Assembly (NCBI GenBank): GCA_013178285.1
Contig: JABLXD010000001.1
Span: 186,001-250,000 of the forward strand
Source of the DNA: Methanofastidiosum sp.
Lineage (GTDB): Archaea; Methanobacteriota_B; Thermococci; Methanofastidiosales; Methanofastidiosaceae
Direction: 5' to 3'
Length of the DNA: 64,000 nt
In this document: piece after piece, positions 6,472 to 55,540 of the stretch
Position numbering within the stretch: the stretch's first letter is position 1
Layout of the letters: each line of letters starts with the position of its first letter
Notes under the pieces: model-generated
Told to the model about the DNA's origin: nothing
Databases searched by the model: none
Seen by the model: the letters and a program-made list of their open reading frames with translations, nothing else
Program-made: the position numbers and the translations under genes

Positions 6472-7431
6472 TCAATATAAGTGGCAGGCAACAAAGTGAT
6501 TCTTACCAGACTCAACAAGAGGGGGCTCTTTTGTTTCACATATCTTTCCTATTTTCTTAAAGCACCTTTCATGGAATCTGCATCCTGAAGGGGGATTAAT
6601 TGGGCTTGGAACATCACCTTGCAATATTATTTCTTTTTTTCTTAGCTTAGGATTAACAGTAGGAACTGCAGAAAGTAGTGCTTCTGTGTAGGGGTGGAGG
6701 GGGTTTTTAAAAAGTTCTTTTTTAGGCGCCATCTCTACAATTTTTCCAACATACATCACTGCAACTCTATCACAAATATGCTTTATTACGCTAAGATCAT
6801 GTGTAATAAATAGGTAAGTAAATCCAAACTCTTTTTGTAGATCCTGCATCAAATTTAGTATCTGCGCCTGGATAGATACATCCAAGGCTGAAACAGGTTC
6901 ATCTGCAACTACAAATTCAGGATTTACAGCAAGGGTTCTTGCCAGTCCAATTCTCTGTCTTTGACCTCCAGAAAACTCATGAGGGTACCTGTTTATCTGC
7001 TCAGGCGTTAATCCTACCTTTTCCATTATCTCTAAAACTTTTTTCTCCCTATCTGCCTTGGGGTAGAGGTTGTGGATGTCCATGGGCTCTGAGATAATGC
7101 TGCCAACTGTCATCCTAGGGTCTAATGATCCAAATGGATCCTGGTATACAATCCCCATCTTTCTCCTGTATGCCCTCATCTCTTCTCTTTTCAGGTGAGT
7201 TATGTCTTCGCCTCTAAAGATTATTTTGCCGCCGTCTGGCTCATAAATCTTCAGAATAGTTTTTCCGCATGTCGTCTTGCCGCACCCACTCTCCCCAACA
7301 AGGCCAAGAATTTCACCTTCCATTATCTTAAAAGAAACATTGTCAACGGCCTTGATGACATCTGGTTTCTTTAGAAACTCTGCCTTTGTGTTAAAGTACT
7401 TTTTCAGCTCAATAATCTCTAGGATTTCCAT
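6472..7431 (-). CDS. oppF: Oligopeptide/dipeptide ABC transporter ATP-binding protein (OppF/DppF type)
   Basis: Second ATPase of the peptide importer. Walker A is GESGCGKTT, the Q-loop VYQDPFGSL, the signature [14 protein letters not shown], Walker [13 protein letters not shown] and the switch histidine FITHDL. The C-terminal oligopeptide-transporter domain has the cysteine pattern GCRFHERC...C..KEPPL. A longer open frame exists, but the ATG at 7431 is preferred: it sits 5 bases after a GGAGG-type site and gives the usual N-terminus. This start lies 13 bases inside the upstream ATPase gene, so translation is coupled. It is the last gene of the opp operon. Confidence 0.92.
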
Positions 7432-8402
7432 GGAAGTTCCTCCAAATAGCACCTTGATAGATGGCCATTCTCTTTTCTTTCTAAAGGAGGCTCTTTTTGC
7501 CTGCAGATGTCCATAGCATAAGGGCACCTTGGTTGAAATTTGCACCCTGGTGGCAGATCTATGAGATCAGGAACATTACCTTCAATTATTTGTAGCCTTT
7601 TTTTATCGACATCGAGCCTTGGAATCGCATTGTTTAAGCCAACTGTATAGGGATGCAAGGGATTTTCAAATATGTTTTCTACGCTCCCCTGCTCAACTAT
7701 CTTACCCGCATACATCACTGCAACATTCTTGCACGTTTCTGCAACGACTCCAAGGTCGTGAGTTATAAGAAGAACTGCTGTAGAAAATTCATCTTTTAAG
7801 TCTTCAATCAATCTCAATATCTGCGCTTGGATTGTAACGTCCAAAGCTGTGGTAGGCTCGTCAGCTATCAATAGCTTAGGATTGCAGGAAAGCGCCATTG
7901 CAATCATTGCCCTCTGTCTCATCCCACCTGAGAGCTGGTGAGGATACTCCTTAAATCTCTTCTCAGCTTCAGGTATTCCAACTATCTTTAACATCTCTAT
8001 AGCTTTCCTTGTGGCTTGTTTTTTGTCTAGATCTTGGTGGAGCATTATGACCTCCATGAGCTCATGGCCTATAGTAAAAAGAGGGTCAAGAGAAGTCATT
8101 GGCTCTTGGAATATCATCGATATCTCCTTCCCCCTTATCTTCTGCATTTCCTTTTCAGTCTTTGTAATAAGATCCGCACCATCGAGAAAGATATTCCCTC
8201 CAACTATTTTTCCAGGAGGGTATGGGACCAGCCTTATTACTGAGAGAGCTGTTACAGACTTTCCGCATCCACTCTCCCCAACAAGGCCAAAAGACTCCTT
8301 TTTATCAATTGAAAAACTGACTCCGTCTACCGCCTTTACTACTCCGTCATCGGTGAAAAAATGAGTTTTAAGCTCAGATACCTCAAGAAGGGGTTTTGTC
8401 AT
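7419..8402 (-). CDS. oppD: Oligopeptide/dipeptide ABC transporter ATP-binding protein (OppD/DppD type)
   Basis: First ATPase of the importer, 327 residues. Walker [10 protein letters not shown]-loop [11 protein letters not shown], signature [15 protein letters not shown], Walker [13 protein letters not shown] and LITHDLGVV are all present. The C-terminal family domain has [16 protein letters not shown]. The start overlaps the stop of the preceding permease by four bases (ATGA), and its 3' end contains the ribosome binding site for the next gene. With the two permeases and lipoprotein it forms a complete system. Confidence 0.94.
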
Positions 8403-9304
8403 ATCTTACTCCCTCCTTTAAGTCTTGGATCTAGTGCGTCCCTTAATCCATCACCCAGCATATTAAGTGAGATAACTGAGAGTAAAATAGCAATACCTGG
8501 AAACGTGGCCGCCCACCAGGCACCCGTCACTAGGTATTTTCTCGCAATTGAGAGGGAAAGGCCCCATTCTGGAGAGGGTGGCTGTGCACCAACACCAAGG
8601 AACCCAAGGGCTGCTGCATCAAGTATTGCTGTTGCAAGCATGAGAGTTGAATAGACTATGAGTGGTGCTAGGGAGTTTGGCAGGACATGTTTGAAAACTA
8701 TCCTCCAGTTTGAAGCACCTAGGGCGTGTTCTGCTTCGATGTATTCCATCTCTTTAATTGATAGAACTGAGCTTCTAATTATTCTCGCCATTTGAGGTGC
8801 GTATACTATCCCAATTGCAAGCATGGCCTTATCTATGCCCCTTCCAAGAGTACCTGCAACTACAAGAGCTAGTAATAGGGCAGGGTAGGCAAAAAGGATG
8901 TCTGCTATCCTCATCAAAATACTATCTATCTTACCTCCTACATATCCCGCAACAAGGCCCAATCCTGTTCCAACTATTAAAGCAAATCCTAGTGCAACAA
9001 ACCCTACGCTAAGTGTTATCCTCCCGCCATAAAGCATCCTCGAAAGTATATCCCTGCCTAAATTATCTGTTCCGAGATAGTACCCTTCAAGCCCGTCGTC
9101 AGCCCAAAATCCTGGTTTTAGGCCACGGTCAAGGTCAACATCAGTAGGATTGTGTGGAGCAAATATAGGGGCGCCAAAACAAAGTATGAATATAACAATG
9201 AGCATCCCAAGACCAATCATGGCAGTCTTATTCTTCCTAAGCTGCTTGATTGTTATCTCGGCCCTTGTACGCTGCTTTGGTTTTATTGGTAATCCCTTCT
9301 CCAT
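8399..9304 (-). CDS. oppC: Oligopeptide/dipeptide ABC transporter permease (OppC/DppC type)
   Basis: Integral membrane subunit with an N-terminal OppC_N segment (LRKNKTAMIGLGMLIVIFI, then FAPHNPTDVDLD) and a BPD_transp_1 domain. The EAA loop that contacts the ATPases is EAEHALGASNWRIVFKHVLP. The gene can be read from further upstream (9349), but the ATG at 9304 follows GAGG by six bases and falls one base after the stop of the preceding permease, so I use it; an ATG at 9316 is the alternative. Partner of the adjacent OppB. Confidence 0.9.
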   Translation of the reverse strand: MEKGLPIKPKQRTRAEITIKQLRKNKTAMIGLGMLIVIFILCFGAPIFAPHNPTDVDLDRGLKPGFWADDGLEGYYLGTDNLGRDILSRMLYGGRITLSVGFVALGFALIVGTGLGLVAGYVGGKIDSILMRIADILFAYPALLLALVVAGTLGRGIDKAMLAIGIVYAPQMARIIRSSVLSIKEMEYIEAEHALGASNWRIVFKHVLPNSLAPLIVYSTLMLATAILDAAALGFLGVGAQPPSPEWGLSLSIARKYLVTGAWWAATFPGIAILLSVISLNMLGDGLRDALDPRLKGGSKI

Positions 9305-9305
9305 C

Positions 9306-10313
9306 TCATCCCTCATACTTAATTCTCGGATCAATATACACATAGACAATATCTGTAATTAGATTAACAATGACAAAAAGAGTTGCAAAGAATAAGGTGA
9401 ATCCCTGGACCACAGGGTAATCATAGGCAAGTATCGCATCAGTGATATACTTCCCAAGTCCAGGAAGTGTGAAGATAGTTTCTGTTAAGACCGCCCCTCC
9501 CATAAGTAATCCTATCTCCATCCCGATGACAGTAACTATGGGTATCAGGGCGTTTTTCACTGCATGCTTGTATACTACAGTTCTTTCTGAAAGACCCTTT
9601 GCCCTTTCAGTTCTAATAAAATCCTGTCTTAAAACTTCAAGCATTGATGAGCGGGTCATCCTTGCAACAGTTGCCATTGGTATTGTTGCAAGAGCAAATG
9701 CTGGAAGTATCAGATGTTCAATAGAGTCAACAAATGCAGGCCAATTCAATGTTAGGATGCTATCAAGGACATACATCCCAGTAATCCGTTGAAGCTCTAT
9801 ACCTATTGAAAGCCTACCCCCTACCGGAGTTAACCCTAACTGTATACTAAATATATAGATTAACATAAGCCCTAGCCAGAATACTGGCATGGACACACCA
9901 AAGAGAGCGCCTAGCATGACCCCATAATCCGCTATTGAATACTGCTTAACTGCAGATATAACGCCGGCAATAATGCCTATTATAGTGGCTATAATAATTG
10001 CAAAAAGAGTAAGCTCTAGGGTCATAGGTAGTCGTTCTATTATCTCGTTAGTAACAAGGTCACGGGACTCTATTGACCTTCCAAGATCTCCTTGTATAGC
10101 CATCCTGAGCCAATAGAAATATTGAACGTATATTGGATCATTAAGATGGTATTTCTCCCTTATGTTTTCTAAAACTTGAGGTGAAGCGTGCTCTCCGGCA
10201 AGATGAACTGCAGGGTCTCCCGGAGCAAGCCTAACTAAACTAAATGTGATTATGGACACTCCAAAAAGGACTATGACCAATAATCCCAATCTTTTTAGTA
10301 TATACTCCTTCAT
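9306..10313 (-). CDS. oppB: Oligopeptide/dipeptide ABC transporter permease (OppB/DppB type)
   Basis: 335-residue inner permease starting MKEYILKRLGLLVIVLFGVS, the family's usual N-terminal helix. GDLGRSI and VARMTRSSMLEVLRQDFIRTERAKGLSE (written here in pieces) carry the EAA-type coupling loop, and VLTETIFTLPGLGKYITDAI is a characteristic OppB/DppB motif. It follows the binding-protein gene after 36 bases. The operon order binding protein, B, C, D, F is the classic arrangement for di/oligopeptide or nickel importers; substrate is not decidable here. Confidence 0.93.
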   Translation of the reverse strand: MKEYILKRLGLLVIVLFGVSIITFSLVRLAPGDPAVHLAGEHASPQVLENIREKYHLNDPIYVQYFYWLRMAIQGDLGRSIESRDLVTNEIIERLPMTLELTLFAIIIATIIGIIAGVISAVKQYSIADYGVMLGALFGVSMPVFWLGLMLIYIFSIQLGLTPVGGRLSIGIELQRITGMYVLDSILTLNWPAFVDSIEHLILPAFALATIPMATVARMTRSSMLEVLRQDFIRTERAKGLSERTVVYKHAVKNALIPIVTVIGMEIGLLMGGAVLTETIFTLPGLGKYITDAILAYDYPVVQGFTLFFATLFVIVNLITDIVYVYIDPRIKYEG

Positions 10314-10349
10314 TTTTAATCTCCAAAAAAAAAGAAAATAAAAATTAAT

Positions 10350-12038
10350 TTATTTTTCTTTATATACTGGATAAAAGAACTTCCTATCTGTTGGGTGTAT
10401 CACGAAACCCTTTATGTTTGACCTAAAGGCTAAATTCTGGTCTGCATGTGCAATGAATACGTGTGTGGATTCGTCTACAATCATCTTGTTTGCAAGCTTG
10501 TAGAGTGTATCCCTCTGCTCTTGGTCGAATGTCAAGAGGGCATTGTTCAAAACTTTTTGTAGTGGCGCATTCCTCTTAAAGCCGTAGTTACCAGCACTGC
10601 CAACTGTGCAGACGTGGTCAGAGTATAGGACATTTAAGAAGTTGTCTGGGTCACCATTGTCGCCGGACCATCCGAGCATTATCATTGGTGCCTTCCCTGC
10701 TTCTGCATCCTGTAAGTATGTTCCCCAGTCTTCAGTGAATAGATTTACCTTTATTCCAACCTTTGAAAGGTCGCTCTGTATCGCCTCTGCTATTCCAGTT
10801 GGTTCTGGGAAGTATGGTCTTGAGGTTGAACCCATGTGCCAGAGTGTTACTTCAAATCCATTTTCATAACCTGCATCTTTCAATAATTGCTTTGCTTTAT
10901 CTGGGTTGTATGGGTATCCTACAATGTCGTAATTGTATCCGAGTAGCCCTGGTGGCATTCCTTGAACGGCAACAGTTGCTGCTCCATTGTAAAGATTCTT
11001 TACTATTGCTTCTTTATTAATTGCGTATTGGATAGCTTGCCTTACCCTGATATCTTTGAATGGTTCAAATTCTCCTGGAACTGCGACTTCTTCTCCATCG
11101 TCCCACTGGTAGTTACCATTCTTGTCGACATAGCCTTCCCCACAGTTTAGGGCAATGTAACCAACATTCATACCCGCCTGAGAAACAAGCTGCAAGTTTG
11201 GATTTTGTTTGATTATCTCAAGCTGTGATGGGTCTGGGTATTCCATTCCATCTACTTCACCTGCCTGTAAGGCCATAAGACGTGCAGAGGGGTCTGGTAT
11301 AACCCTGAATATTACCTGATCAAGGTATGCCCTTCCTCCCCAGTAGCCCTCGAATGCCTTCAAGGTGATGTGGTCATCCTTTACCCACTCGACAAATTCA
11401 AATGGTCCTGTACCAACTGGGTTTTTGAAGTAATCGTCTCCATATTGCTTTGCTGCTTTTTCACTTACTATATCAGCAGTGAACATTGCAAGGCTTGTCA
11501 TCATCGAAGAGTTTGGCTTAGTCATATGAATTGCAACTGTGTAGTCATCTATCTTCTCAACTTTTTCAATGTCGCTGAACATGTAACCCCAGTATGCCCA
11601 TTCCCCTTTGTCATGGTACCAGTTGTTTACATCATACTGTCTTGCAAAAGAGAATACGACGTCATCTGCGGTCATCTCTCCAAATCCTTTGTGGAATTGG
11701 ACGCCTTTTCTAAGCTTAAATGTAATTGTTTTCTTATCTTCTGAGATTGTCCACTCAGTAGCAAGAGCAGGTTTTATACTTGTAGTTCCCTCTTCATACA
11801 TGACGAGTCCCTCATGTATGTTGTCCATCCTCTGTATTGATTCACCATCTGTGACATCAGCTGGATCGAGTCTAACTGCATCACCACTGGAACCAAAGAC
11901 TAATGTACCCCCATATTTGGAAGTTGCGTCTGTTGTGCTTGGAGGGGTTGTTGTTCCCTGGTCAGCACAACCGCTAAAAACGGATGACAGCATTATCAAT
12001 GCTATCAAGAGTCCAAGTAGTTTACCTTCTTTTTTCAT
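10350..12038 (-). CDS. oppA: Peptide ABC transporter substrate-binding lipoprotein (SBP family 5)
   Basis: Extracytoplasmic solute receptor of the opp operon. The lipobox SSVFSGC near residue 27 marks a lipid-anchored or processed N-terminus, followed by a Thr/Pro linker and the family-5 fold, including the signature region around GTTSIKPALATEWTIS and KKTITFKLRKGVQFHKG. I start at the ATG at 12038 because AGGTGA lies five bases upstream; the longer frame would need a GTG inside that site. First gene of the operon; AT-rich sequence upstream carries its promoter. No evidence fixes the substrate as dipeptide, oligopeptide or nickel chelate. Confidence 0.92.
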   Translation of the reverse strand: MKKEGKLLGLLIALIMLSSVFSGCADQGTTTPPSTTDATSKYGGTLVFGSSGDAVRLDPADVTDGESIQRMDNIHEGLVMYEEGTTSIKPALATEWTISEDKKTITFKLRKGVQFHKGFGEMTADDVVFSFARQYDVNNWYHDKGEWAYWGYMFSDIEKVEKIDDYTVAIHMTKPNSSMMTSLAMFTADIVSEKAAKQYGDDYFKNPVGTGPFEFVEWVKDDHITLKAFEGYWGGRAYLDQVIFRVIPDPSARLMALQAGEVDGMEYPDPSQLEIIKQNPNLQLVSQAGMNVGYIALNCGEGYVDKNGNYQWDDGEEVAVPGEFEPFKDIRVRQAIQYAINKEAIVKNLYNGAATVAVQGMPPGLLGYNYDIVGYPYNPDKAKQLLKDAGYENGFEVTLWHMGSTSRPYFPEPTGIAEAIQSDLSKVGIKVNLFTEDWGTYLQDAEAGKAPMIMLGWSGDNGDPDNFLNVLYSDHVCTVGSAGNYGFKRNAPLQKVLNNALLTFDQEQRDTLYKLANKMIVDESTHVFIAHADQNLAFRSNIKGFVIHPTDRKFFYPVYKEK

Positions 12039-12163
12039 TAATTTCACCTTAGAAACTCACTCTTACTGAAAGATATTGTTCTATTTAACTTTTTCTATAT
12101 CTATTGAGAATATAGCAGTAAAAATTAATTGATTTAATAAAAAAGAAAGAGAATTATTAAGAT

Positions 12164-13203: not shown

Positions 13204-14040
13204 TTAAGGAACTCTTGTCGTGATATCCCTTATCGTAGCATATGTCTCAAGTGCATCGTGAGTGTATGAGATAGTTCCAGAATAAACGCCGCTCTGCTTT
13301 GCCTTTAAGTGAATTTGGAAATCAAGCACTTCACTTGGGTCAAGTTCCCCAATGTAGAATTTGTTTCCTTCAACTTTTACAACTGGCTCAGTGCTAACAA
13401 GTGTAAAATTAGAATAGTAGTCCTCTGATATCTCTACTATCACATTAGTCGCCTTTCCCTGACCGTAGTTTTGCATCTTGAGTTTAATATCACCGAGATT
13501 ATCAACTGTTTCTGTAGTATAAGATATGCTTGCAAGGACTAACGGAAGATCCCTTATGCTGACCCTTCCCTCGGCAGCTTGTTTTACTTCATTTTCAAAG
13601 CTAACGTTTGACCCATTGACAAGGTTAAAAACTTCTTCATAGGTCTTTTCACGCTCTGAGCCTGCAATGATTATGACTTTATCGGCGTGTCCGTAAGGGT
13701 CCGGCTTGATAAAAGCAAATTTTTGCCCTGGCTGCCTTATGAAGCTCATTTCAAGGGAGTCTAGATATTTACTTACTAAGGGCCCAGTTCCAAATGGGGC
13801 ATCTGGCCCACCAAGGATAACAACTAGTTTTACGCCTTTTATCTGAGCCATATCTTCAGGGGCTAGAAATTCTGGGAAAAGACCAAATCCCCTGAAATAG
13901 TCTTCTAAGATAGGTTTTGCTACGATATCTATATTGTTTGAGATTATATAGACGTCCTGCTGTGCTGAGATTGGTATTAAAGCCATGCTTAATACAATGA
14001 TAAAAGAAACTACTAAAGTAAAGAATTTTTTATTAATCAT
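13204..14040 (-). CDS. Secreted protein: S-layer/cell-wall-binding-like N-domain plus CARDB-like C-domain
   Basis: 278 residues with a signal peptide (to about ISAQQ). Residues about 30-150 form an alpha/beta domain reading YIISNNIDIVAKPILEDYF, VKLVVILGGPDAPFGTGPL and ADKVIIIAGSEREKTYE. This resembles archaeal S-layer/putative cell-wall-binding modules that alternate beta-strand and helix around G-G-P and G-S-E-R turns. The C-terminal 110 residues duplicate the CARDB-like domain of the next gene. A TATA-like TTATATATAA near 14060 sits where a promoter is expected. Function beyond surface location is unknown. Confidence 0.6.
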   Translation of the reverse strand: MINKKFFTLVVSFIIVLSMALIPISAQQDVYIISNNIDIVAKPILEDYFRGFGLFPEFLAPEDMAQIKGVKLVVILGGPDAPFGTGPLVSKYLDSLEMSFIRQPGQKFAFIKPDPYGHADKVIIIAGSEREKTYEEVFNLVNGSNVSFENEVKQAAEGRVSIRDLPLVLASISYTTETVDNLGDIKLKMQNYGQGKATNVIVEISEDYYSNFTLVSTEPVVKVEGNKFYIGELDPSEVLDFQIHLKAKQSGVYSGTISYTHDALETYATIRDITTRVP

Positions 14041-14192: not shown

Positions 14193-14336
14193 ACTAAATA
14201 AAACTTTGTAAAACATTGGAGAGATTATTTTAAGAATTTAATTCTTAATTAACCTTTAATTTTATGATAAAATGACGTTTTACACAAAAATTATATATAA
14301 CGGACAAATGAAGATTTATTAGCCTAACAAGGAGGT
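14193..14336 (+). promoter_or_regulatory. Promoter of peptide-family copy 1: upstream element, GTTTTACAC box, TATA, strong RBS
   Basis: Contains the shared upstream element (AATAAAACTTTGTAAAACAT at 14197-14216, then TTATTTTAA), a GTTTTACAC-like box just before the TATA box TTATATATAA (14291-14300), and a full ribosome binding site AAGGAGGT (14329-14336), six bases before the ATG. The same order and spacing recur before the other three family members. The roughly 300-base gap before the gene otherwise holds only the divergent promoter of the minus-strand gene. Confidence 0.7.
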
Positions 14337-14342
14337 TAAACT

Positions 14343-14678
14343 ATGAAGAAAATTATGACCTTGTTTATTGCTGTTGCATTGATCGCATCTATGGGTATCG
14401 GCGCAATAGCCGGTGCAAACAAAGATACCTTCGCAAATGCAGTTAATGACGAGCAGGCCCAACTTGCACTTGAAAAAGCAGCTGTTGAGTTTGCAAATGG
14501 CAACGATGTCGAAGGCTTGGCTGCTGAAGACGATGCTACAAACAACTTTGGAAAGACTGAACTTGGATTCCACAAGCTTGCCGGAGCAGTTATTTCTGCA
14601 AGCTGGTGCATTGATACACCATCGCATCCAACATACAGAATGCACAAGCCATTGTGTACTATATGTACGCCTAACTAA
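14343..14678 (+). CDS. Small secreted cysteine-containing protein, family copy 1
   Basis: 111 residues: signal peptide to about IGAIAGA; a conserved acidic/Ala-rich helical segment (EQAQLALEKAAVEFANGND); the invariant ATNNFGKTELGF; and a C-terminal region AGAVISASWC, then a short variable loop and YRMHKPLCTICTPN. Three cysteines remain in the mature part: one after SASW and a terminal CxxC after HKP. I do not recognise a named family. Copy 4 at 17142 is almost identical except in the last 15 residues. The cysteines could form a disulfide or, with the His, a metal site. The perfect ribosome binding site implies abundant expression. Confidence 0.85.
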   Translation: MKKIMTLFIAVALIASMGIGAIAGANKDTFANAVNDEQAQLALEKAAVEFANGNDVEGLAAEDDATNNFGKTELGFHKLAGAVISASWCIDTPSHPTYRMHKPLCTICTPN

Positions 14679-14730
14679 ATATATTATATATTTTAATTAA
14701 TATTTTTTCTATTTTTAAGGTAATATTTGA

Positions 14731-14874
14731 TTTAAATAAAACAATATGAAACATCTTTTGCCTTATTTTTAATTTCTGGGGTTTATTTAGACTTTAATTT
14801 TATCTGAAATTGAAGGTTTAGACAACAACTATATATAAGGAACAAATAAAAATGTATTAGCTTAACAAGGAGGT
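14731..14874 (+). promoter_or_regulatory. Promoter of peptide-family copy 2
   Basis: Upstream element AAATAAAACAATATGAAACA (14734-14753) followed by CCTTATTTTTAA, a GGTTTAGACAACAAC box abutting the TATA box CTATATATAA (14829-14838), and AAGGAGGT (14867-14874). Spacing from upstream element to TATA is about 80 bases, as in the other copies. Confidence 0.7.
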
Positions 14875-14880
14875 TACGCT

Positions 14881-15261
14881 ATGAAGAAGATTATGACCTT
14901 GTTTATTGCAGTTGCTTTGATCGCATCCTTTGGTATCAGCGCAATAGCTGGTGCTGGAGAAGATGAATTTGCAAATGCAGTAATTAACGAAGAAGCTCAA
15001 TTGGCATTAGAAAAGGCTGCGATTGAGTTTGCTAACGGTAACGATGTTGAAGGTGTCGCAGCTGAGGAAGATGCAACAAACAACTTTGGTAAGACTCAGC
15101 TTGGATTCTTGAGGATTTCCGGTGCTGTAATATCTGCAAGCTGGTGCATTAACACACCGGCACACGCTTACTACAGAATGCACAAACCATACTGCTCAAA
15201 CTGTGGTCCAAGTGCAGGATTTACCCACGTAGGCATTGGAATATGTGTTGATGCTACATAA
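14881..15261 (+). CDS. Small secreted cysteine-containing protein, family copy 2 (extended tail)
   Basis: 126 residues with the same plan as copy 1: signal peptide, Ala/Glu helical segment, ATNNFGKTQLGF, GAVISASWC, and YRMHKPYCSNC. It differs in a C-terminal extension (GPSAGFTHVGIGICVDAT) that adds a fourth mature cysteine. The upstream half is conserved at the protein level but has many synonymous changes relative to copy 1, so it is under selection and not a fresh duplicate. Function unknown. Confidence 0.85.
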   Translation: MKKIMTLFIAVALIASFGISAIAGAGEDEFANAVINEEAQLALEKAAIEFANGNDVEGVAAEEDATNNFGKTQLGFLRISGAVISASWCINTPAHAYYRMHKPYCSNCGPSAGFTHVGIGICVDAT

Positions 15262-15300
15262 TTTTACTTTATTTTTTTATTATTCTATTTTTCTAAGTCA

Positions 15301-15440
15301 AGTGAAAGATTGTGAAACGTCTCTGGCCTTATTTTTATAATTTGAGTTATCAATAGTTTTTAATTGATGAAGAAAAAAAAAGGTTTACACCACAACTATA
15401 AATACTAGCTATACGCATTAAATACGGTGAAAAAAAGGGG
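15301..15440 (+). promoter_or_regulatory. Promoter of peptide-family copy 3 (most divergent)
   Basis: Keeps the upstream element core (GATTGTGAAACGTCTCTGGC, then CTTATTTTTATAA, 15308-15340), the GGTTTACACCACAAC box and the TATA box CTATAAATA (15397-15405). It lacks the AAGGAGGT site; only a G-run near 15436-15442 precedes the ATG, so translation is likely weaker than for the other copies. Confidence 0.6.
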
Positions 15441-15452
15441 GCTTAGAGATAG

Positions 15453-15794
15453 ATGAAAAGAATTTTGAGTTTAGGGATTTCGCTCATAATGATCTTTTCC
15501 ATTGCAATCATTGCTATTGCTGGATCCAATGAGGATGCATTTGCAGAGGCTGTCCTTAGCGAAAAGGCTGAGCTTTCACTTGAAAAGGCAGCTTTAGAGT
15601 TTGCCCAAGGAAATGATGTTGAAGGCTTAGCTTTAGAGAATAATGCTACAAACAACTTTGGGAAGACTCAGCTTGGGTTCTTGAGGATTTCTGGAGCTGT
15701 TATCACAGCTAGTTGGTGCCCAGGATTATACACACCTTACAGACCACACAAGCCATACTGCAGTATCTGTTACTCAGTACAAGTACTAGAATAA
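15453..15794 (+). CDS. Small secreted cysteine-containing protein, family copy 3 (divergent)
   Basis: 113 residues: signal peptide MKRILSLGISLIMIFSIAII, then the conserved LEKAALEFAQGNDVEGLA and NNATNNFGKTQLGF, then GAVITASWC and a loop with PYRPHKPYCSIC. The tail (YSVQVLE) differs from all others. The strict retention of NATNNFGKT.LGF and of W-C plus CxxC while the loop and tail vary suggests a conserved processing or folding scaffold with a variable functional end. Function unknown. Confidence 0.83.
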   Translation: MKRILSLGISLIMIFSIAIIAIAGSNEDAFAEAVLSEKAELSLEKAALEFAQGNDVEGLALENNATNNFGKTQLGFLRISGAVITASWCPGLYTPYRPHKPYCSICYSVQVLE

Positions 15795-15909
15795 ATTTAA
15801 AATTTAATTATTCTTTTTTTTGAAGATTGATTTTAGATCAATCCAACATTTTTCGCAATAGAAGGCAAAAGGATAAAAAAATATACGAAGTATTTATCAT
15901 GGTGTTTTT

Positions 15910-16953
15910 ATGAAGAAAATACTTACTTTTGTCCTTGTAATGGCAATTATGATTTCTATTTTACCTGGAATTTCTGCACCTATTCAGGTACAAATAATTC
16001 CAGAAGGAATACAGCCCGGAGCCTCCATAGTCAATGACTATTGTGTCCCGGATTATTATTCGATAGGAACATTTACATTGGCCCAACGTCAAATTGTTTC
16101 CGTTAATATACCCCCTACCGCATGCCCTCCTGTCAAACAAGGGCCTATTCTAGGGATGGCAACAATTGCAGCCCCAATAGGTCAACTCAACGATATAGGT
16201 CTCGAGGCCGATTTTTCAGTTATAGACATCCCACAATATCAATATACTTGCTATTACAAGAGCCCTTGCCCTTGCATAATCCCTGAAGGTCCGAATGGAA
16301 TAACGAATGGTGCTGGCCAAGTTGGGATATGCCCTCCCAGGGGACTCCAAATATGTGTGACTAGCCCCACCACCCCATGTTTATCTATCCGTATTTATGG
16401 GGATCAAGGCCCTATATCTGTTACTTTGCCGAATCAAGTTGGCCCTAATGAGTGGTGCACTTCCATACCTATAGCTCCAGATATTGTAAGAATTGAAATA
16501 CAAAATTGTGGGGATCCTCTAGAAGGGGAAGTAGTGATATGGGAATGCTGCTGTTACGACTGCTATAAACAAAAAGCACTTCCGACCACGCTCTACCCAA
16601 AGATAGACATAGAGACATTCTCAGTTGCAGGTGGTCCAACAGTTATCCAGAACGGGAAGGTTATCTCAAAATTCCAGATGACACCAGGAAGCCAACAGGT
16701 ATTACTACAAGTAGAAAACAGAGGATTCTTTACCCAAAACGATACAAGATTAAAGTTTGAAGGACTCCCAGAAGGGATAACAGTTGAGATAGCTCCAGAA
16801 ACGCAAAAGATAAACGCCCACAATATCGGTACCTATTCAGCCAATTTTACTGTAGGGCCAAACGTCCCTTCAGGTACATACCAAGTAACAATGGTGGCGT
16901 ACTCGCCCAACGGCATGTTTGACAAGATAACATTTGAGTTCGTTGTGCAATAA
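15910..16953 (+). CDS. Secreted beta-sandwich protein with NEW3-like C-terminal domain, copy 1
   Basis: 347 residues with a signal peptide (to about GISAP) and a Cys/Pro-rich N-terminal half, including clusters YKSPCPCIIP and WECCCYDCYKQ. The C-terminal 120 residues (from LYPKIDIETFSVAGG) form an alpha-galactosidase NEW3/COG1470-like Ig domain ending FEFVVQ. That domain is strongly paralogous to the C-terminus of the protein at 29742-30680 (shared QVENRGFFTQN, AHN.GTYSA.FTV, NVPSGTY). It sits inside the four-copy peptide cluster and may be a surface partner of it; that link is positional only. The start follows GGTG by five bases. Confidence 0.7.
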   Translation: MKKILTFVLVMAIMISILPGISAPIQVQIIPEGIQPGASIVNDYCVPDYYSIGTFTLAQRQIVSVNIPPTACPPVKQGPILGMATIAAPIGQLNDIGLEADFSVIDIPQYQYTCYYKSPCPCIIPEGPNGITNGAGQVGICPPRGLQICVTSPTTPCLSIRIYGDQGPISVTLPNQVGPNEWCTSIPIAPDIVRIEIQNCGDPLEGEVVIWECCCYDCYKQKALPTTLYPKIDIETFSVAGGPTVIQNGKVISKFQMTPGSQQVLLQVENRGFFTQNDTRLKFEGLPEGITVEIAPETQKINAHNIGTYSANFTVGPNVPSGTYQVTMVAYSPNGMFDKITFEFVVQ

Positions 16954-16990
16954 TTAATTTATTTTTTTATTCTTTTCTAAGCTCAAATTA

Positions 16991-17135
16991 ACCTAAATAA
17001 AACAATGTGAAACATTATTGGACTTATTTTAAGATTTTAGGATTGGATAAGCCTTATTTATACTTCTAATTAAAAGGTTTACACAACAATTATATATAAC
17101 GGACAAATCAAGATTTATTAGCCTAACAAGGAGGT
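16991..17135 (+). promoter_or_regulatory. Promoter of peptide-family copy 4
   Basis: Upstream element AAATAAAACAATGTGAAACA (16994-17013) and GACTTATTTTAAG, then AGGTTTACACAACAA abutting the TATA box TTATATATAA (17090-17099), and AAGGAGGT (17128-17135). From TATA to ATG it is nearly identical to copy 1, and both copies also share CCTTATTTATACTT further up (14152 and 17052), consistent with recent duplication of the whole transcription unit. Confidence 0.7.
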
Positions 17136-17141
17136 TAAACT

Positions 17142-17471
17142 ATGAAGAAAATTTTTACCTTGTTTATTGCAGTTGCATTAATCGCATCTATGGGTATCGG
17201 CGCAATAGCTGGTGCAAATGAAGACACGTTTGCAAATGCAGTTAATGACGAGCAGGCCCAACTTGCACTTGAAAAAGCAGCTGTTGAGTTTGCAAATGGC
17301 AACGATGTTGAAGGCTTGGCTGCTGAAGACGATGCTACAAACAACTTTGGAAAAACTGAACTTGGATTCCACAAGCTTGCCGGAGCAGTTATTTCAGCAA
17401 GCTGGTGCATTGATACACCATCACACAATCCATACAGAATGCACAAGCCAAACTGTGGTTCATGCCAATAA
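17142..17471 (+). CDS. Small secreted cysteine-containing protein, family copy 4
   Basis: 109 residues, almost identical to copy 1 through AGAVISASWCIDTPSH, then diverging to NPYRMHKPNCGSCQ. The nucleotide sequence is also nearly the same up to that point, so divergence is concentrated at the 3' end where the CxxC lies. Same signal peptide, helical segment and ATNNFGKTELGF. Function unknown. Confidence 0.85.
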   Translation: MKKIFTLFIAVALIASMGIGAIAGANEDTFANAVNDEQAQLALEKAAVEFANGNDVEGLAAEDDATNNFGKTELGFHKLAGAVISASWCIDTPSHNPYRMHKPNCGSCQ

Positions 17472-17717: not shown

Positions 17718-17936
17718 TAAAGGTTGGGTAGAGATTTTTATAATTTGTGTAATTTTAGAGAAGGTGGATTTTGGATGAAGATCTATAAAGAGTATATTGT
17801 GACTTTCAAATGAGTGAAAAATCGATATATTACTGAGCCTTATATAAGATTATTAAATTTATATAGTATAATAAAAAAATATAGCCCAAATAGCAAATCT
17901 TAAAAAGGTTGGGCCATAGTTCATTTAATCTCACCT

Positions 17937-18032
17937 GCCGGGGTGGCTTAGCCTGGTTATAGCGCACGGCTCATAAGCATGAAACAAGGCTGGGAAACCG
18001 TGAGGTCGCGGGTTCGGATCCCGCCCCCGGCA
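17937..18032 (+). tRNA. tRNA-Met (CAT), elongator type, with 21-base intron
   Basis: Acceptor GCCGGGG pairs with CCCCGGC; the T arm is GCGGG/CCCGC around TTCGGAT; discriminator A. The anticodon stem CACGG/CCGTG encloses loop CTCATAA with anticodon CAT at 17972-17974. An insert of 21 bases (17976-17996, boundary ambiguous by an A) follows position 37, the canonical archaeal intron site. The body matches archaeal elongator Met rather than initiator (which starts AGCGGG). The tRNA-splicing endonuclease is encoded at 32200-32706. Confidence 0.93.
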
Positions 18033-18077
18033 CCTTTTAATTCTATTCCAATTTACTTTGGCAGTAGAAAATACAAA

Positions 18078-18602
18078 CTAGTCCATGTCCAAACCTATTA
18101 TCAATAAAGGTATGGTAACGGACATCTTAGCATATCTTAATTCCCGTATAACTCTTTCGAAAAATGCTACATTTTCATCGATAGTTTTTGCAAAAATCTG
18201 AGTTGGGATTACAGATATTCCTAGGTCTATTTCATCTAATGAATAGGATATCTGAAATTTAAAAATGTCCGCATACCATCTCGCCATATTTCCAAATTGA
18301 ACTTCGATTTGAATTCTATCTTTTTTGTAATCTGCCTTTATTTTAGTCAAATCATCATTAGTAATTAAAGGTTCAATTTCCCAATTATAAAGTCTAAATC
18401 GTTCTTTGACATAATCATTTATCTTAGATTGATCAGTCGTGAAAATTAAGTTTTTTCTTCCTCTATGGCGATATTTTGGTTTATCTAGAATAAATACAGG
18501 GCAGTTTTCAAAGATAGAGATTACCATATTATAATAATCTATATATTTTGGGCTTTTCAAAACTTCTTCTGCAAATCTATGACTATAAAATTTAAGTTTC
18601 AC
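18078..18602 (-). CDS. BglII/BstYI-like type II restriction endonuclease
   Basis: 174 residues. The segment KADYKKDRIQIEVQFGN has Asp91, Glu100 and Gln102, the same D-x8-E-x-Q spacing as the BglII active site (Asp84, Glu93, Gln95, from memory), followed by ARWYADIFKFQISY, typical of that family. It should cleave a GATC-containing site such as RGATCY or AGATCT; the exact site cannot be read. It lies 58 bases after the methyltransferase stop on the same strand. Base composition is markedly more AT-rich than in the housekeeping genes, suggesting transfer. Confidence 0.8.
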   Translation of the reverse strand: MKLKFYSHRFAEEVLKSPKYIDYYNMVISIFENCPVFILDKPKYRHRGRKNLIFTTDQSKINDYVKERFRLYNWEIEPLITNDDLTKIKADYKKDRIQIEVQFGNMARWYADIFKFQISYSLDEIDLGISVIPTQIFAKTIDENVAFFERVIRELRYAKMSVTIPLLIIGLDMD

Positions 18603-18660
18603 GGAACTAGAAATATGATTTGATATATATAATTAACTCAAATAGTCTGTTAAATGTAAG

Positions 18661-19476
18661 TTATACTGTTACTTTAGCTTCTTTTTCATAGTTTTTATTT
18701 CTTATGGGCAATTTGTATTTGGCTGGAATATCTCCATCTAATCTAATTCTATCTAATATCATATTATAGTATATTTCATCTATCTCTGCAGATACATATT
18801 TTCTACCCAACTGTTTTGCCAATATAACCTCATTTCCAGATCCGCCAAAATGAACAAATATTAAATCATTTGGTAAAGTTGAAGCCAAAATTAGTTTTTC
18901 AACTAATCCTAAGGGTATTTGACAAGAATGAATAGTTTTATCTTTTGATACATTTTTTACTAAATCATAATATAACCATGAATATGGCATTCTTCCCGAA
19001 GATCCATTTGAAATATTTTGTAATATTCTTTTATCTTTTGGATTCTTATATGGCTCAGCAACTGTTTTCTTAAACCATTTATTATTTTTAGTTTTTCTAC
19101 AATGCAAAATACTTCGATGGGCTCTAGTAAATTTTTTTGGGGAGTGGCCTACATTTGTATTGTAGACCCATACATAATCCACTACTTCATGACAAACTTC
19201 ATCTAAATATTTTACTCTCAAGTTGGCATTTTGTTTGGGATAGTTAATAAAAAACATGTTCCCATCATCTTTTAGAACTCTAAAGGATTCTTGAGCAAGT
19301 TCAATATACCATTGTATGTACTCATTGAAATTACGAGTATAAGATTTATCATTATATTTGATGCCTACGTTGTAATCAGGATCACTATATATCATGTCCA
19401 CTGATTTATCAGGCATATTTTTTAAGACGTTCATTACGTCATTATGAAAAATTCTATTTTCATATTTAATTTTCAT
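18661..19476 (-). CDS. Type II DNA N6-adenine (or N4-cytosine) methyltransferase, beta class
   Basis: 271 residues. The catalytic motif IV is MIYSDPDYNVG (residues 28-38), a DPDY variant of DPPY. The AdoMet-binding motif I comes later as FVHFGGSGNEVILAKQLGRK with YVSAEID, giving the IV-before-I order of the beta class (HinfI-like). Motif I has G-G-S-G where F-x-G-S-G is usual. It overlaps the upstream endonuclease stop by 11 bases and precedes the BglII-like gene, so it is the protecting enzyme of the island. Confidence 0.85.
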   Translation of the reverse strand: MKIKYENRIFHNDVMNVLKNMPDKSVDMIYSDPDYNVGIKYNDKSYTRNFNEYIQWYIELAQESFRVLKDDGNMFFINYPKQNANLRVKYLDEVCHEVVDYVWVYNTNVGHSPKKFTRAHRSILHCRKTKNNKWFKKTVAEPYKNPKDKRILQNISNGSSGRMPYSWLYYDLVKNVSKDKTIHSCQIPLGLVEKLILASTLPNDLIFVHFGGSGNEVILAKQLGRKYVSAEIDEIYYNMILDRIRLDGDIPAKYKLPIRNKNYEKEAKVTV

Positions 19477-20278
19477 CTAACTCCCTTAATACCCTATATT
19501 CTCTTTTTTTAAGGACTTTAATAGAGGTAATATCTAAAGGATCTTTAAAGGTATAGTTATATAGTCTGACATAGGACCCATTGTCTTTTCTCTGGCGGAT
19601 TAAATAGCAAGCAGTTATTTCACTTATATCTAATTTATTTTTTTCTTTTAGTTCATGATAATATCTAAATGGTGTATACAATTGGTATATATTAAAGTTG
19701 TCAATCCATTCGTAAGAATTTTTTGTATTTTTACCTTCAAATACAGTTACCTTCCCATTCATTTCTATTGTTAAATCTATTTCTGTTTGTAGATTCTCAA
19801 ATTTCATAGGGATACTCTCTATGTTATAAGAGAAGTTAATTCCTCGTTTTCTTTCACTGTTATACATCTTTGGACTACAAGATACATCTTTATACAAAAA
19901 GTCATGCATTATTCTTTGATTAAAACAAAGTGATAAAACGCTACTCTCAGAAATAGAGTAATCATTTAGTATACTTGGAACATAAGCCCACTTTTCAATT
20001 TCGTTTTCTTTAATAGATTCAAATTTGTGATATATTTTAGAAATACCTTTAACAAACATATGTTTCCCAGACCCAATGTGGGCTATAAAATAGTCTTTAT
20101 CTAATAGTATTTTGGGTAATTTTGAGATATGATCTATTTTAGTCATGTCATAAGGATTAGTTTTAGAACCACTATCCATTACTATTTTTTTAATTAATTC
20201 ATTATCAAAAACATAATTATTATTTTTTTCACAATAGTCAAATATAAGTTCAATTATACCTCTCTTATTTATTGCCAT
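19466..20278 (-). CDS. Putative PD-(D/E)xK restriction endonuclease
   Basis: 270 residues. The segment TEIDLTIEMNGKVTVFEGKN provides Asp168 and Glu181-Gly-Lys183, a PD-(D/E)xK nuclease core. The N-terminus looks helical and DNA-binding (GIIELIFDYCEKNN...). The gene overlaps the methyltransferase, as restriction genes often do. I do not recognise the exact specificity family, so the function is inferred from core motif and context. Having this plus a BglII-like enzyme with one methyltransferase is unusual. Confidence 0.65.
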   Translation of the reverse strand: MAINKRGIIELIFDYCEKNNNYVFDNELIKKIVMDSGSKTNPYDMTKIDHISKLPKILLDKDYFIAHIGSGKHMFVKGISKIYHKFESIKENEIEKWAYVPSILNDYSISESSVLSLCFNQRIMHDFLYKDVSCSPKMYNSERKRGINFSYNIESIPMKFENLQTEIDLTIEMNGKVTVFEGKNTKNSYEWIDNFNIYQLYTPFRYYHELKEKNKLDISEITACYLIRQRKDNGSYVRLYNYTFKDPLDITSIKVLKKREYRVLRELDEN

Positions 20279-24614: not shown

Positions 24615-25055
24615 TTATGCTGATTCATTCCCAAATCCAAGTATCTTCATGAATTTAAACATTGGAAGGGAGTTTGAAGTTATTGTCACTGGATTTGAAA
24701 CTATATTTCCATTTATTTTTGCTGAAGTTGGAGGGCCAAAATCAAATTTAATAGTTCCTGGAGCTGTTGCTCTGTAAATCCATGTGAAAGTTTGCTCAAC
24801 TGGGAAAAGACCTTTTGAAAATGAGGTGGCAGGTCTTGATACTAAAACGGCATCGCCTTTGGGCTTATCTCCGTCTGCTATTATAGCCGGGTCTAGGCTT
24901 GAAGGATAGTTAGTTGTAACTGTTATCAATTCTCCAACTTTTACTGTTTCAGGAGCTGCAACAGCTGAAAACCTTATATCTGCCATCGTAGAAGCAACAC
25001 CAAATACACTTACTACGAATAGTAAGGATACCAATATAACAAATAATTTCTTCAT
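24615..25055 (-). CDS. Secreted chagasin-like/Ig-fold protein with conserved C-terminal tail, copy 1
   Basis: 146 residues from the ATG at 25055, chosen because GGTGAT lies five bases upstream and the remainder begins MKKLFVILVSLLFVVSVFG, a signal peptide. The middle is a beta-sandwich (ETVKVGELITVTTNYPSS, then FTWIYRATAPGTIKFDFG) resembling chagasin/I42 protease inhibitors. It ends LPMFKFMKILGFGNESA, a tail shared with two other proteins in this window (25503 and 55001). Inhibitor function is inferred only from fold resemblance. Confidence 0.65.
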   Translation of the reverse strand: MKKLFVILVSLLFVVSVFGVASTMADIRFSAVAAPETVKVGELITVTTNYPSSLDPAIIADGDKPKGDAVLVSRPATSFSKGLFPVEQTFTWIYRATAPGTIKFDFGPPTSAKINGNIVSNPVTITSNSLPMFKFMKILGFGNESA

Positions 25056-25106
25056 AATTATCACCATTGTATTTAATTAAAATAAATTCTCTAATATTTA
25101 AAGATA

Positions 25107-54880: not shown

Positions 54881-54994
54881 CTAGAAAAGGGAAAAATTTC
54901 CTTTATTACTTTCCCTATTTTTTTCCCTATTTTCCCTATTTTTTGCCATATCTTTATATATAGGGAAAATCTTCATATTATACACCTATAGGTG
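54881..54994 (+). promoter_or_regulatory. Repeat-rich promoter region of chagasin-like copy 3
   Basis: Near-tandem copies of TTTCCCTATTTT (within about 54910-54945) lie between the inversely oriented GGGAAAAATTTCC (54890-54901) and TAGGGAAAA (54961-54969). The TATA-like CTTTATATA is at 54951-54960, and CACCTATAGGTG (54983-54994), a perfect 12-base palindrome, contains the AGGTG ribosome binding site. Confidence 0.5.
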
Positions 54995-55000
54995 ATAATT

Positions 55001-55540
55001 ATGAAGAAAATATTAGCTATGACGATATCCTTACTATTTGTAGTAAGCGTTTTTGGTATTGCCTCAACGATGGCTGAATGTCAATTCGACGAAGGATACT
55101 ATAAAATCAGTAACAATACGCCCAAAGTTGGAGAAACATTTTCAATTACTCTAGAAAAAGCCGCTATGGGTAGTGTTAAAATCGAAGGTAAAACAGTCGA
55201 TCAAATAACTTTAGAAATTGTTGCAAATAAGAAACTCCCTTACCAAATAGGTACTGTTGAGTTAATAAATGTAGAATATTATAAAGCAGATGGCACATTA
55301 ATTTACAGCGGACTCGTATTACCAGATGCTCTGCCATCTCCAGATTTTCCACATTGGGGTGAACTTGCTCCAAAAAGTTGGGACGATGTTGCATCAATAA
55401 GATGGATATTCAGAGCAGTGAAGCCAGGCAAATTGACTTTAAATGGAGCATGTGGTGAAATAGAAACAGTCACAATCCTTTCCAAAGATCTGCCATTCAA
55501 ATTCTTTGCAAAACTATTTGGCTTTGGACAGAAAAAATAA
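55001..55540 (+). CDS. Secreted chagasin-like/Ig-fold protein with conserved C-terminal tail, copy 3
   Basis: 179 residues from the ATG at 55001, six bases after AGGTGA. Signal peptide MKKILAMTISLLFVVSVFGI is nearly the same as in the two copies near 25 kb. The middle domain (NNTPKVGETFSITLEKAAMG, IRWIFRAVKPGKLTLNGACG) is chagasin-like. It ends LPFKFFAKLFGFGQKK, a looser version of the shared FMKILGFG tail. Located next to tRNA-Leu, far from its paralogs. Confidence 0.65.
   Translation: MKKILAMTISLLFVVSVFGIASTMAECQFDEGYYKISNNTPKVGETFSITLEKAAMGSVKIEGKTVDQITLEIVANKKLPYQIGTVELINVEYYKADGTLIYSGLVLPDALPSPDFPHWGELAPKSWDDVASIRWIFRAVKPGKLTLNGACGEIETVTILSKDLPFKFFAKLFGFGQKK

What the first reader, a model, noticed from the sequence alone, without database searches (positions are those of the whole stretch)
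14193..17471. Four-copy family of small secreted cysteine peptides, each behind the same promoter
Four genes (14343, 14881, 15453, 17142) share a signal peptide, an Ala/Glu helix, an invariant ATNNFGKT.LGF block, and [ST]ASWC followed by HKP.C..C. The last 15-45 residues vary between copies, while the upstream part is conserved. Copies 1 and 4 are nearly identical except at the 3' end. This is the pattern of a conserved scaffold with a diversifying C-terminal end, as in toxins, bacteriocin-like peptides, pheromones or metal-binding secreted proteins. I recognise no family. No modification enzyme is adjacent.
Basis: partly seen in the sequence, partly recalled or inferred. Interest (0 to 1): 0.85.

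Follow-up and report, generated by a model that had tools for sequence, protein, structure and literature searches.

The report
Secreted archaeal peptides with hypervariable tails
A methane-producing archaeon carries four copies of a small secreted protein, unlike any catalogued family and found in only one genus, whose front part is nearly frozen while its last ~20 residues change very fast, the pattern expected of peptides used in competition, signalling or recognition between microbes.

Summary
Four tandem genes (14343, 14881, 15453, 17142) encode a Sec-type signal peptide, an acidic scaffold of exactly 62 residues and a short variable tail. They are the only copies in the 2.1-Mb genome. 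Each sits behind two promoter elements 81-82 bp apart that match nowhere else in the genome. Relatives occur in 9 of 10 Candidatus Methanofastidiosum species and nowhere else searched; no library names the family. The locus is syntenic, between a divergent secreted-protein gene and an intron-containing tRNA-Met. Variation is C-terminal: scaffold dN/dS is about 0.03-0.12 against 0.45-1.9 plus indels in the tail (p = 3e-7). In the close pair G006/G007, promoter, scaffold and 3' flank are nearly identical while the tail is replaced. One interpretation fails: cysteines do not define the family. Four species have YY-type tails, mostly without cysteine, so a shared metal site is unlikely. What persists is an aromatic start, an HKP motif and positive charge. 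Best reading: secreted pro-peptides, an acidic carrier with a rapidly diversifying cationic C-terminal effector, most likely antagonistic and analogous to halocin precursors. Signalling or surface recognition is not excluded. Function is inferred; no activity, processing or immunity gene was shown.

The parts
14196..14216 (+). upstream promoter element, copy 1 (AAATAAAACTTTGTAAAACAT)
   Evidence: only 4 hits in genome; 81 bp start-to-start from the TATA element
14277..14299 (+). proximal promoter element with TATA box, copy 1
14343..14678 (+). copy 1, 111 aa: signal peptide 1-25 (cut predicted after AGA), scaffold 26-87, tail WCIDTPSHPTYRMHKPLCTICTPN
14734..14754 (+). upstream promoter element, copy 2
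14815..14837 (+). proximal promoter element, copy 2
14881..15261 (+). copy 2, 126 aa, longest tail of the four (39 aa)
15300..15320 (+). upstream promoter element, copy 3 (3 mismatches)
15382..15404 (+). proximal promoter element, copy 3 (TATAAATA subtype shared with a G002 copy)
15453..15794 (+). copy 3, 113 aa, divergent signal peptide
16995..17015 (+). upstream promoter element, copy 4 (perfect)
17076..17098 (+). proximal promoter element, copy 4 (perfect)
17142..17471 (+). copy 4, 109 aa, near-identical to copy 1 outside the tail
15910..16953 (+). interleaved secreted Cys-rich protein, 347 aa, no family match; cargo, linkage unproven
13204..14040 (-). divergent secreted protein with weak DUF11/Ig-like C-terminal domain; orthologue beside the family wherever that side of the locus is assembled
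17937..18034 (+). intron-containing tRNA-Met, conserved far border of the locus

Best explanation
A genus-specific family of co-regulated secreted pro-peptides. Shown from sequence: an N-terminal Sec-type signal sequence, a conserved acidic scaffold of fixed length (62 aa) and a fast-evolving, cationic C-terminal tail of 15-59 aa that mostly keeps an aromatic start and an HKP core. Inferred: the signal peptide is removed on export (AGA|N); the acidic scaffold acts as carrier or pro-region, holding the tail soluble and/or binding a conserved partner; the tail is the active, specificity-giving part, possibly released by an extracellular protease. Rapid tail turnover with frozen flanks suggests an arms race, so the most likely use is antagonism towards related archaea or neighbouring microbes (archaeocin-like). 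Extra copies in one genome would widen the repertoire, with a dedicated regulator switching all copies together through the two-element promoter.
For: Regional dN/dS contrast: scaffold 0.03-0.12, tail 0.45-1.9 plus indels; pooled Fisher p = 3e-7 over three independent pairs. In the close pair G006/G007 promoter, scaffold and about 100 nt of 3' flank are almost identical while the tail is rewritten. HKP kept in 10 of 13 distinct tails in an otherwise unalignable region; scaffold pI 4.1-4.7 and tail pI 7.9-10.6 in 14/14. Private two-element promoter with 80-82 bp spacing in 13 of 14 members measured. Tail class (WC/YY) does not follow the species tree: G004 (WC) is sister to G005 (YY). Precedent: halocins C8 and H4 are secreted precursors that release an active C-terminal fragment (PMC12893001).
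Against: No immunity gene, processing protease or maturation enzyme was identified. Acidic body with basic tail is not rare by itself: 6 of 19 other secreted proteins sampled show it. Tail omega above 1 is not individually significant. No solved or named relative. The AlphaFold model of the mature protein is poor (pLDDT 55). Codon usage does not suggest exceptional expression.
Confidence: 0.38

Rival explanations
1. Surface recognition or decoy proteins: the scaffold docks on the cell surface (for example on the divergently encoded DUF11/Ig-like protein) and the tail is an exposed hypervariable epitope for adhesion, kin recognition or evasion of viruses or predators.
For: An orthologue of the 13204 protein sits beside the family in every locus where that side is assembled; genera without the family have only distant paralogues. 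The scaffold is far more conserved than a mere leader needs. The region beyond tRNA-Met is a defence hotspot.
Against: No anchor, transmembrane helix or class III (pilin-type) signal. Co-occurrence is within one genus, so not independent. No structural evidence of binding.
Confidence: 0.25
2. Peptide pheromones: the tail is cleaved and sensed, specificity diverging between species as in Rap-Phr type systems.
For: Small Sec-exported precursors with variable C-termini, several copies, and a private promoter. An oligopeptide ABC transporter lies nearby in the window.
Against: The transporter is present in only 3 of 10 Methanofastidiosum genomes and common in families that lack the peptide. No receptor gene co-varies at the locus.
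Confidence: 0.17
3. Relaxed constraint: the scaffold is the functional unit and the tail merely drifts.
For: Tail dN/dS values lie around 0.5-1.4 and lengths vary from 15 to 59 aa.
Against: HKP, aromatic start and positive charge are retained; no complete member lacks a tail; extensive tail change occurs at low scaffold dS (0.13-0.19).
Confidence: 0.12
4. Cysteine/histidine metal-binding or redox peptides (Cys-His-Cys-x-x-Cys site).
For: The four window copies and G004 share WC...HKPxC; a secreted DsbD/thioredoxin-like gene is syntenic.
Against: Cysteines absent in G001, G005a, G006, G007, G002b and G003 tails; the Dsb-like gene neighbours Cys-free versions too.
Confidence: 0.05

Closest known systems
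Halocin precursors (HalC8, HalH4, HmHapP)
   Same: secreted archaeal precursors; in HalC8 and HalH4 the active part is a C-terminal fragment released by proteolysis (PMC12893001)
   Different: no sequence relative of a known family was found here; halocin precursors are larger, not known as hypervariable tails on one frozen scaffold, and from a different archaeal class
Conotoxin and frog-skin antimicrobial peptide precursors
   Same: conserved signal and pro-region, hypervariable mature C-terminus, small multigene families (analogy from general knowledge; PMC7106915 seen in search)
   Different: animals; no homology; processing sites not shown here
VARTIG modules of Thermococcales (PMC8416519)
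   Same: hypervariable C-terminus in secreted archaeal proteins of the same GTDB class, at variable loci, with Ig-like neighbours
   Different: VARTIG proteins are large multi-Ig-domain proteins that vary by recombination; the paper found no counterpart outside Thermococcales
RiPP precursors
   Same: conserved N-part, variable C-terminal core
   Different: Sec-type signal peptide and no recognisable maturase at the locus

Membership tests
Halocin / archaeocin precursor | sequence match to a known named family | tested here: not met
   no Pfam match and no NCBIfam match above curated cut-offs
Halocin / archaeocin precursor | secreted precursor with N-terminal signal | tested here: met
   charged start, hydrophobic stretch and AGA cleavage motif in nearly all members; read by eye, no dedicated predictor
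Halocin / archaeocin precursor | antimicrobial activity of a released fragment | not testable with these tools
   needs bench assay
RiPP precursor | co-located maturation enzyme | tested here: not met
   neighbours examined; none recognised. Genome-wide maturases not searched
Peptide pheromone (Rap-Phr/Opp type) | re-import by a linked, conserved oligopeptide permease | tested here: not met
   this transporter's binding protein is in 3 of 10 genomes of the genus; unrelated permeases not excluded
Metal-binding CxxC peptide | conserved ligand residues across the family | tested here: not met
   Cys-free tails in several species
VARTIG | large multi-Ig protein with hypervariable C-terminal Ig domain | tested here: not met
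   105-146 aa proteins, no Ig domain match
Diversity-generating retroelement target | template repeat of the variable region elsewhere in the genome | tested here: not met
   tail search finds only the four genes; reverse transcriptase not searched

The most novel reading that the evidence does not exclude
A previously undescribed, regulon-controlled family of hypervariable secreted effector peptides in methanogenic archaea: one frozen scaffold displaying interchangeable tails, under an arms race, with self-protection built into the conserved acidic scaffold instead of a separate immunity gene.
Probability: 0.2. Interest if true: 0.82.

Novelty: new variant of a known kind. Interest (0 to 1): 0.56.

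Why it matters
Secreted peptide weapons or signals are little known in archaea and, as far as I know, not described for the Methanofastidiosum lineage, common in sludge digesters and sediments. A 62-residue constant scaffold with a natural set of about 13 different tails makes function directly testable by synthesising tails, and the private two-element promoter offers a handle on the regulator.

Tried and rejected
Cysteine/metal site: rejected family-wide. Viral, phage or plasmid origin: no hits in viral contigs, phages or plasmids. Protein G-like PDB hits with the 4-sequence profile (best E = 0.021) vanished with the 15-sequence profile: chance. PepSY, RadB and LA_3334 NCBIfam hits are far below cut-off. 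High expression by codon usage: not supported. Oligopeptide-transporter linkage: not conserved. AlphaFold of the mature peptide: pLDDT 55, not used for fold search. Fold search of the 13204 partner: the C-terminal part matches many Ig-like domains; best-ranked GH3 hits have rmsd of 16 or more and are uninformative. Absence of the family in G009 is probably an assembly gap: the syntenic neighbour is also missing there. Literature on Methanofastidiosum gave no mention of such proteins in titles or abstracts.

Full report
Observation. Four plus-strand genes at 14343-14678, 14881-15261, 15453-15794 and 17142-17471 encode 109-126 aa proteins. Over the first 87 residues they share a Sec-type signal peptide ending AIAG[AS], an Ala/Glu-rich segment, NNFGKTxLGF and GAVI[ST]AS; identity to copy 1 is 93, 77 and 63%. 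A whole-genome search returns these four and nothing else, and a tail-only search finds no silent cassettes.

Promoter. A proximal element (GGTTTACACMACAAYTATAWATA, including the TATA box) and an upstream element (AAATAAAACANTGTGAAACRT) precede every copy. With up to 3 mismatches each matches only four places in the 2.1-Mb genome, all here, and shuffles of the window give about none. Start-to-start spacing is 80-82 bp in 13 members across the genus. The G003 copy, the most divergent, lacks both elements. Most copies also carry a strong AAGGAGG ribosome-binding site. Copy 3 shares a promoter subtype with a G002 copy (74% against about 47% to the others) although their signal-peptide DNAs are dissimilar (52%), which suggests past recombination between copies.

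Distribution. Profile searches find relatives in 9 of 10 Candidatus Methanofastidiosum genomes and in none of the other 51 relatives, none of the 11 other order members and none of the other 105 phylum members searched; these sets overlap. The genus name comes from matching public contigs. The scan of about 85,000 species genomes finds only four Methanofastidiosum contigs, one titled Methanofastidiosia, one titled Euryarchaeota archaeon and one 'Firmicutes' MAG contig whose synteny is Methanofastidiosum-like, probably mis-binned. The tenth genome, G009, also lacks the syntenic neighbour, so the locus is probably unassembled there. No phage, plasmid or viral contig matches. No Pfam, NCBIfam, PHROG or PDB match stands.

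Locus. As far as the contigs reach, the family always lies between a divergent secreted protein (window 13204-14040; weak DUF11 match below cut-off, beta-sandwich-like C-terminal part in the model) and an intron-containing tRNA-Met. Copy number is 4 here and 1-2 elsewhere. Unrelated cargo genes are interleaved: a Cys-rich 347-aa secreted protein here and a 263-aa secreted protein in G002. Beyond the tRNA is a changeable defence region: a BglII-like restriction-modification set here, Dnd/Pbe-like genes in G006.

Where the variation is. The scaffold (residues 26-87) is exactly 62 aa in 13 of 14 members with a complete tail and 63 in the other. Mean pairwise identity is 0.70 for the scaffold and 0.21 for the tail. 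dN/dS is about 0.03-0.12 in the scaffold for all but one nearly identical pair and 0.45-1.9 in the tail wherever it could be estimated; three independent pairs pooled give 34:16 against 12:48 synonymous:nonsynonymous changes, p = 3e-7. The clearest case is G006 against G007 and its near-twin ADurb.Bin080: promoter, scaffold and 3' flank almost identical, tail YYWESSLNRAHKPRGSSST against YYWKQVTSPTPGWERTHKPRPKSD. Copies 1 and 4 repeat this within one genome. Tail sequences are short and hard to align, so omega above 1 is not proven for any pair.

What the tails keep. Cysteines are not a family feature: WC...C tails occur in this genome, G002 and G004; YY tails, mostly Cys-free, occur in G001, G005, G006 and G007. 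The WC/YY classes do not follow the species tree. Retained are an aromatic first residue in all but G003, HKP in 10 of 13 distinct tails, and positive net charge (+1 to +5) against an acidic scaffold (-5 to -10) in 14 of 14. A control shows that an acidic body with a basic tail is not rare in single proteins (6 of 19), so only its persistence through tail turnover counts as evidence.

Interpretation. A frozen scaffold with a fast-changing but still constrained cationic tail, exported through the general pathway and under a private promoter, fits a secreted pro-peptide whose tail gives specificity. I favour antagonism (archaeocin-like), by analogy with halocin precursors that release active C-terminal fragments (PMC12893001), at 0.38. 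Surface recognition with the neighbouring secreted protein (0.25) and signalling (0.17) remain open. Metal binding is disfavoured. No step after export is shown.

Novelty. No known family; the architecture is of a known general kind (conserved precursor, variable terminal peptide), hence 'new variant of a known kind'. VARTIG (PMC8416519) is the nearest archaeal hypervariable secreted system I found in the same class but is structurally different.

Noticed in passing
17807-17828: A 22-bp sequence, CAAATGAGTGAAAAATCGATAT, is identical in the window and in L021, L025, L026, L027, L028 and L031 (3 mismatches in L029, not found in L030), always between the peptide genes and tRNA-Met, with or without an intervening 293-aa gene; possibly a promoter or a recombination site.
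   Followed up: partly
18078-20278: Restriction-modification set (BglII-like endonuclease, N6/N4 methylase, DUF6996/6997 protein) just beyond tRNA-Met; the same side holds Dnd/Pbe-like defence genes in G006 and methylase-like genes in G001, G002 and G007: a defence hotspot.
   Followed up: partly
15910-16953: Secreted 347-aa protein, Cys-rich in its N-terminal part, with no relative in Pfam, NCBIfam or viral contigs, inserted between copies 3 and 4.
   Followed up: partly
6475-12047: Oligopeptide-type ABC transporter operon present at this spot in only 3 of 10 genomes of the genus.
   Followed up: yes
24618-25067 and 54992-55537: Small secreted proteins (the first with a weak BatD/DUF11-like match, relatives in G001) with similar signal peptides.
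   Followed up: no
L021: Contig titled Firmicutes bacterium ADurb.Bin080 carries the Methanofastidiosum locus with full synteny; likely mis-binned.
   Followed up: yes
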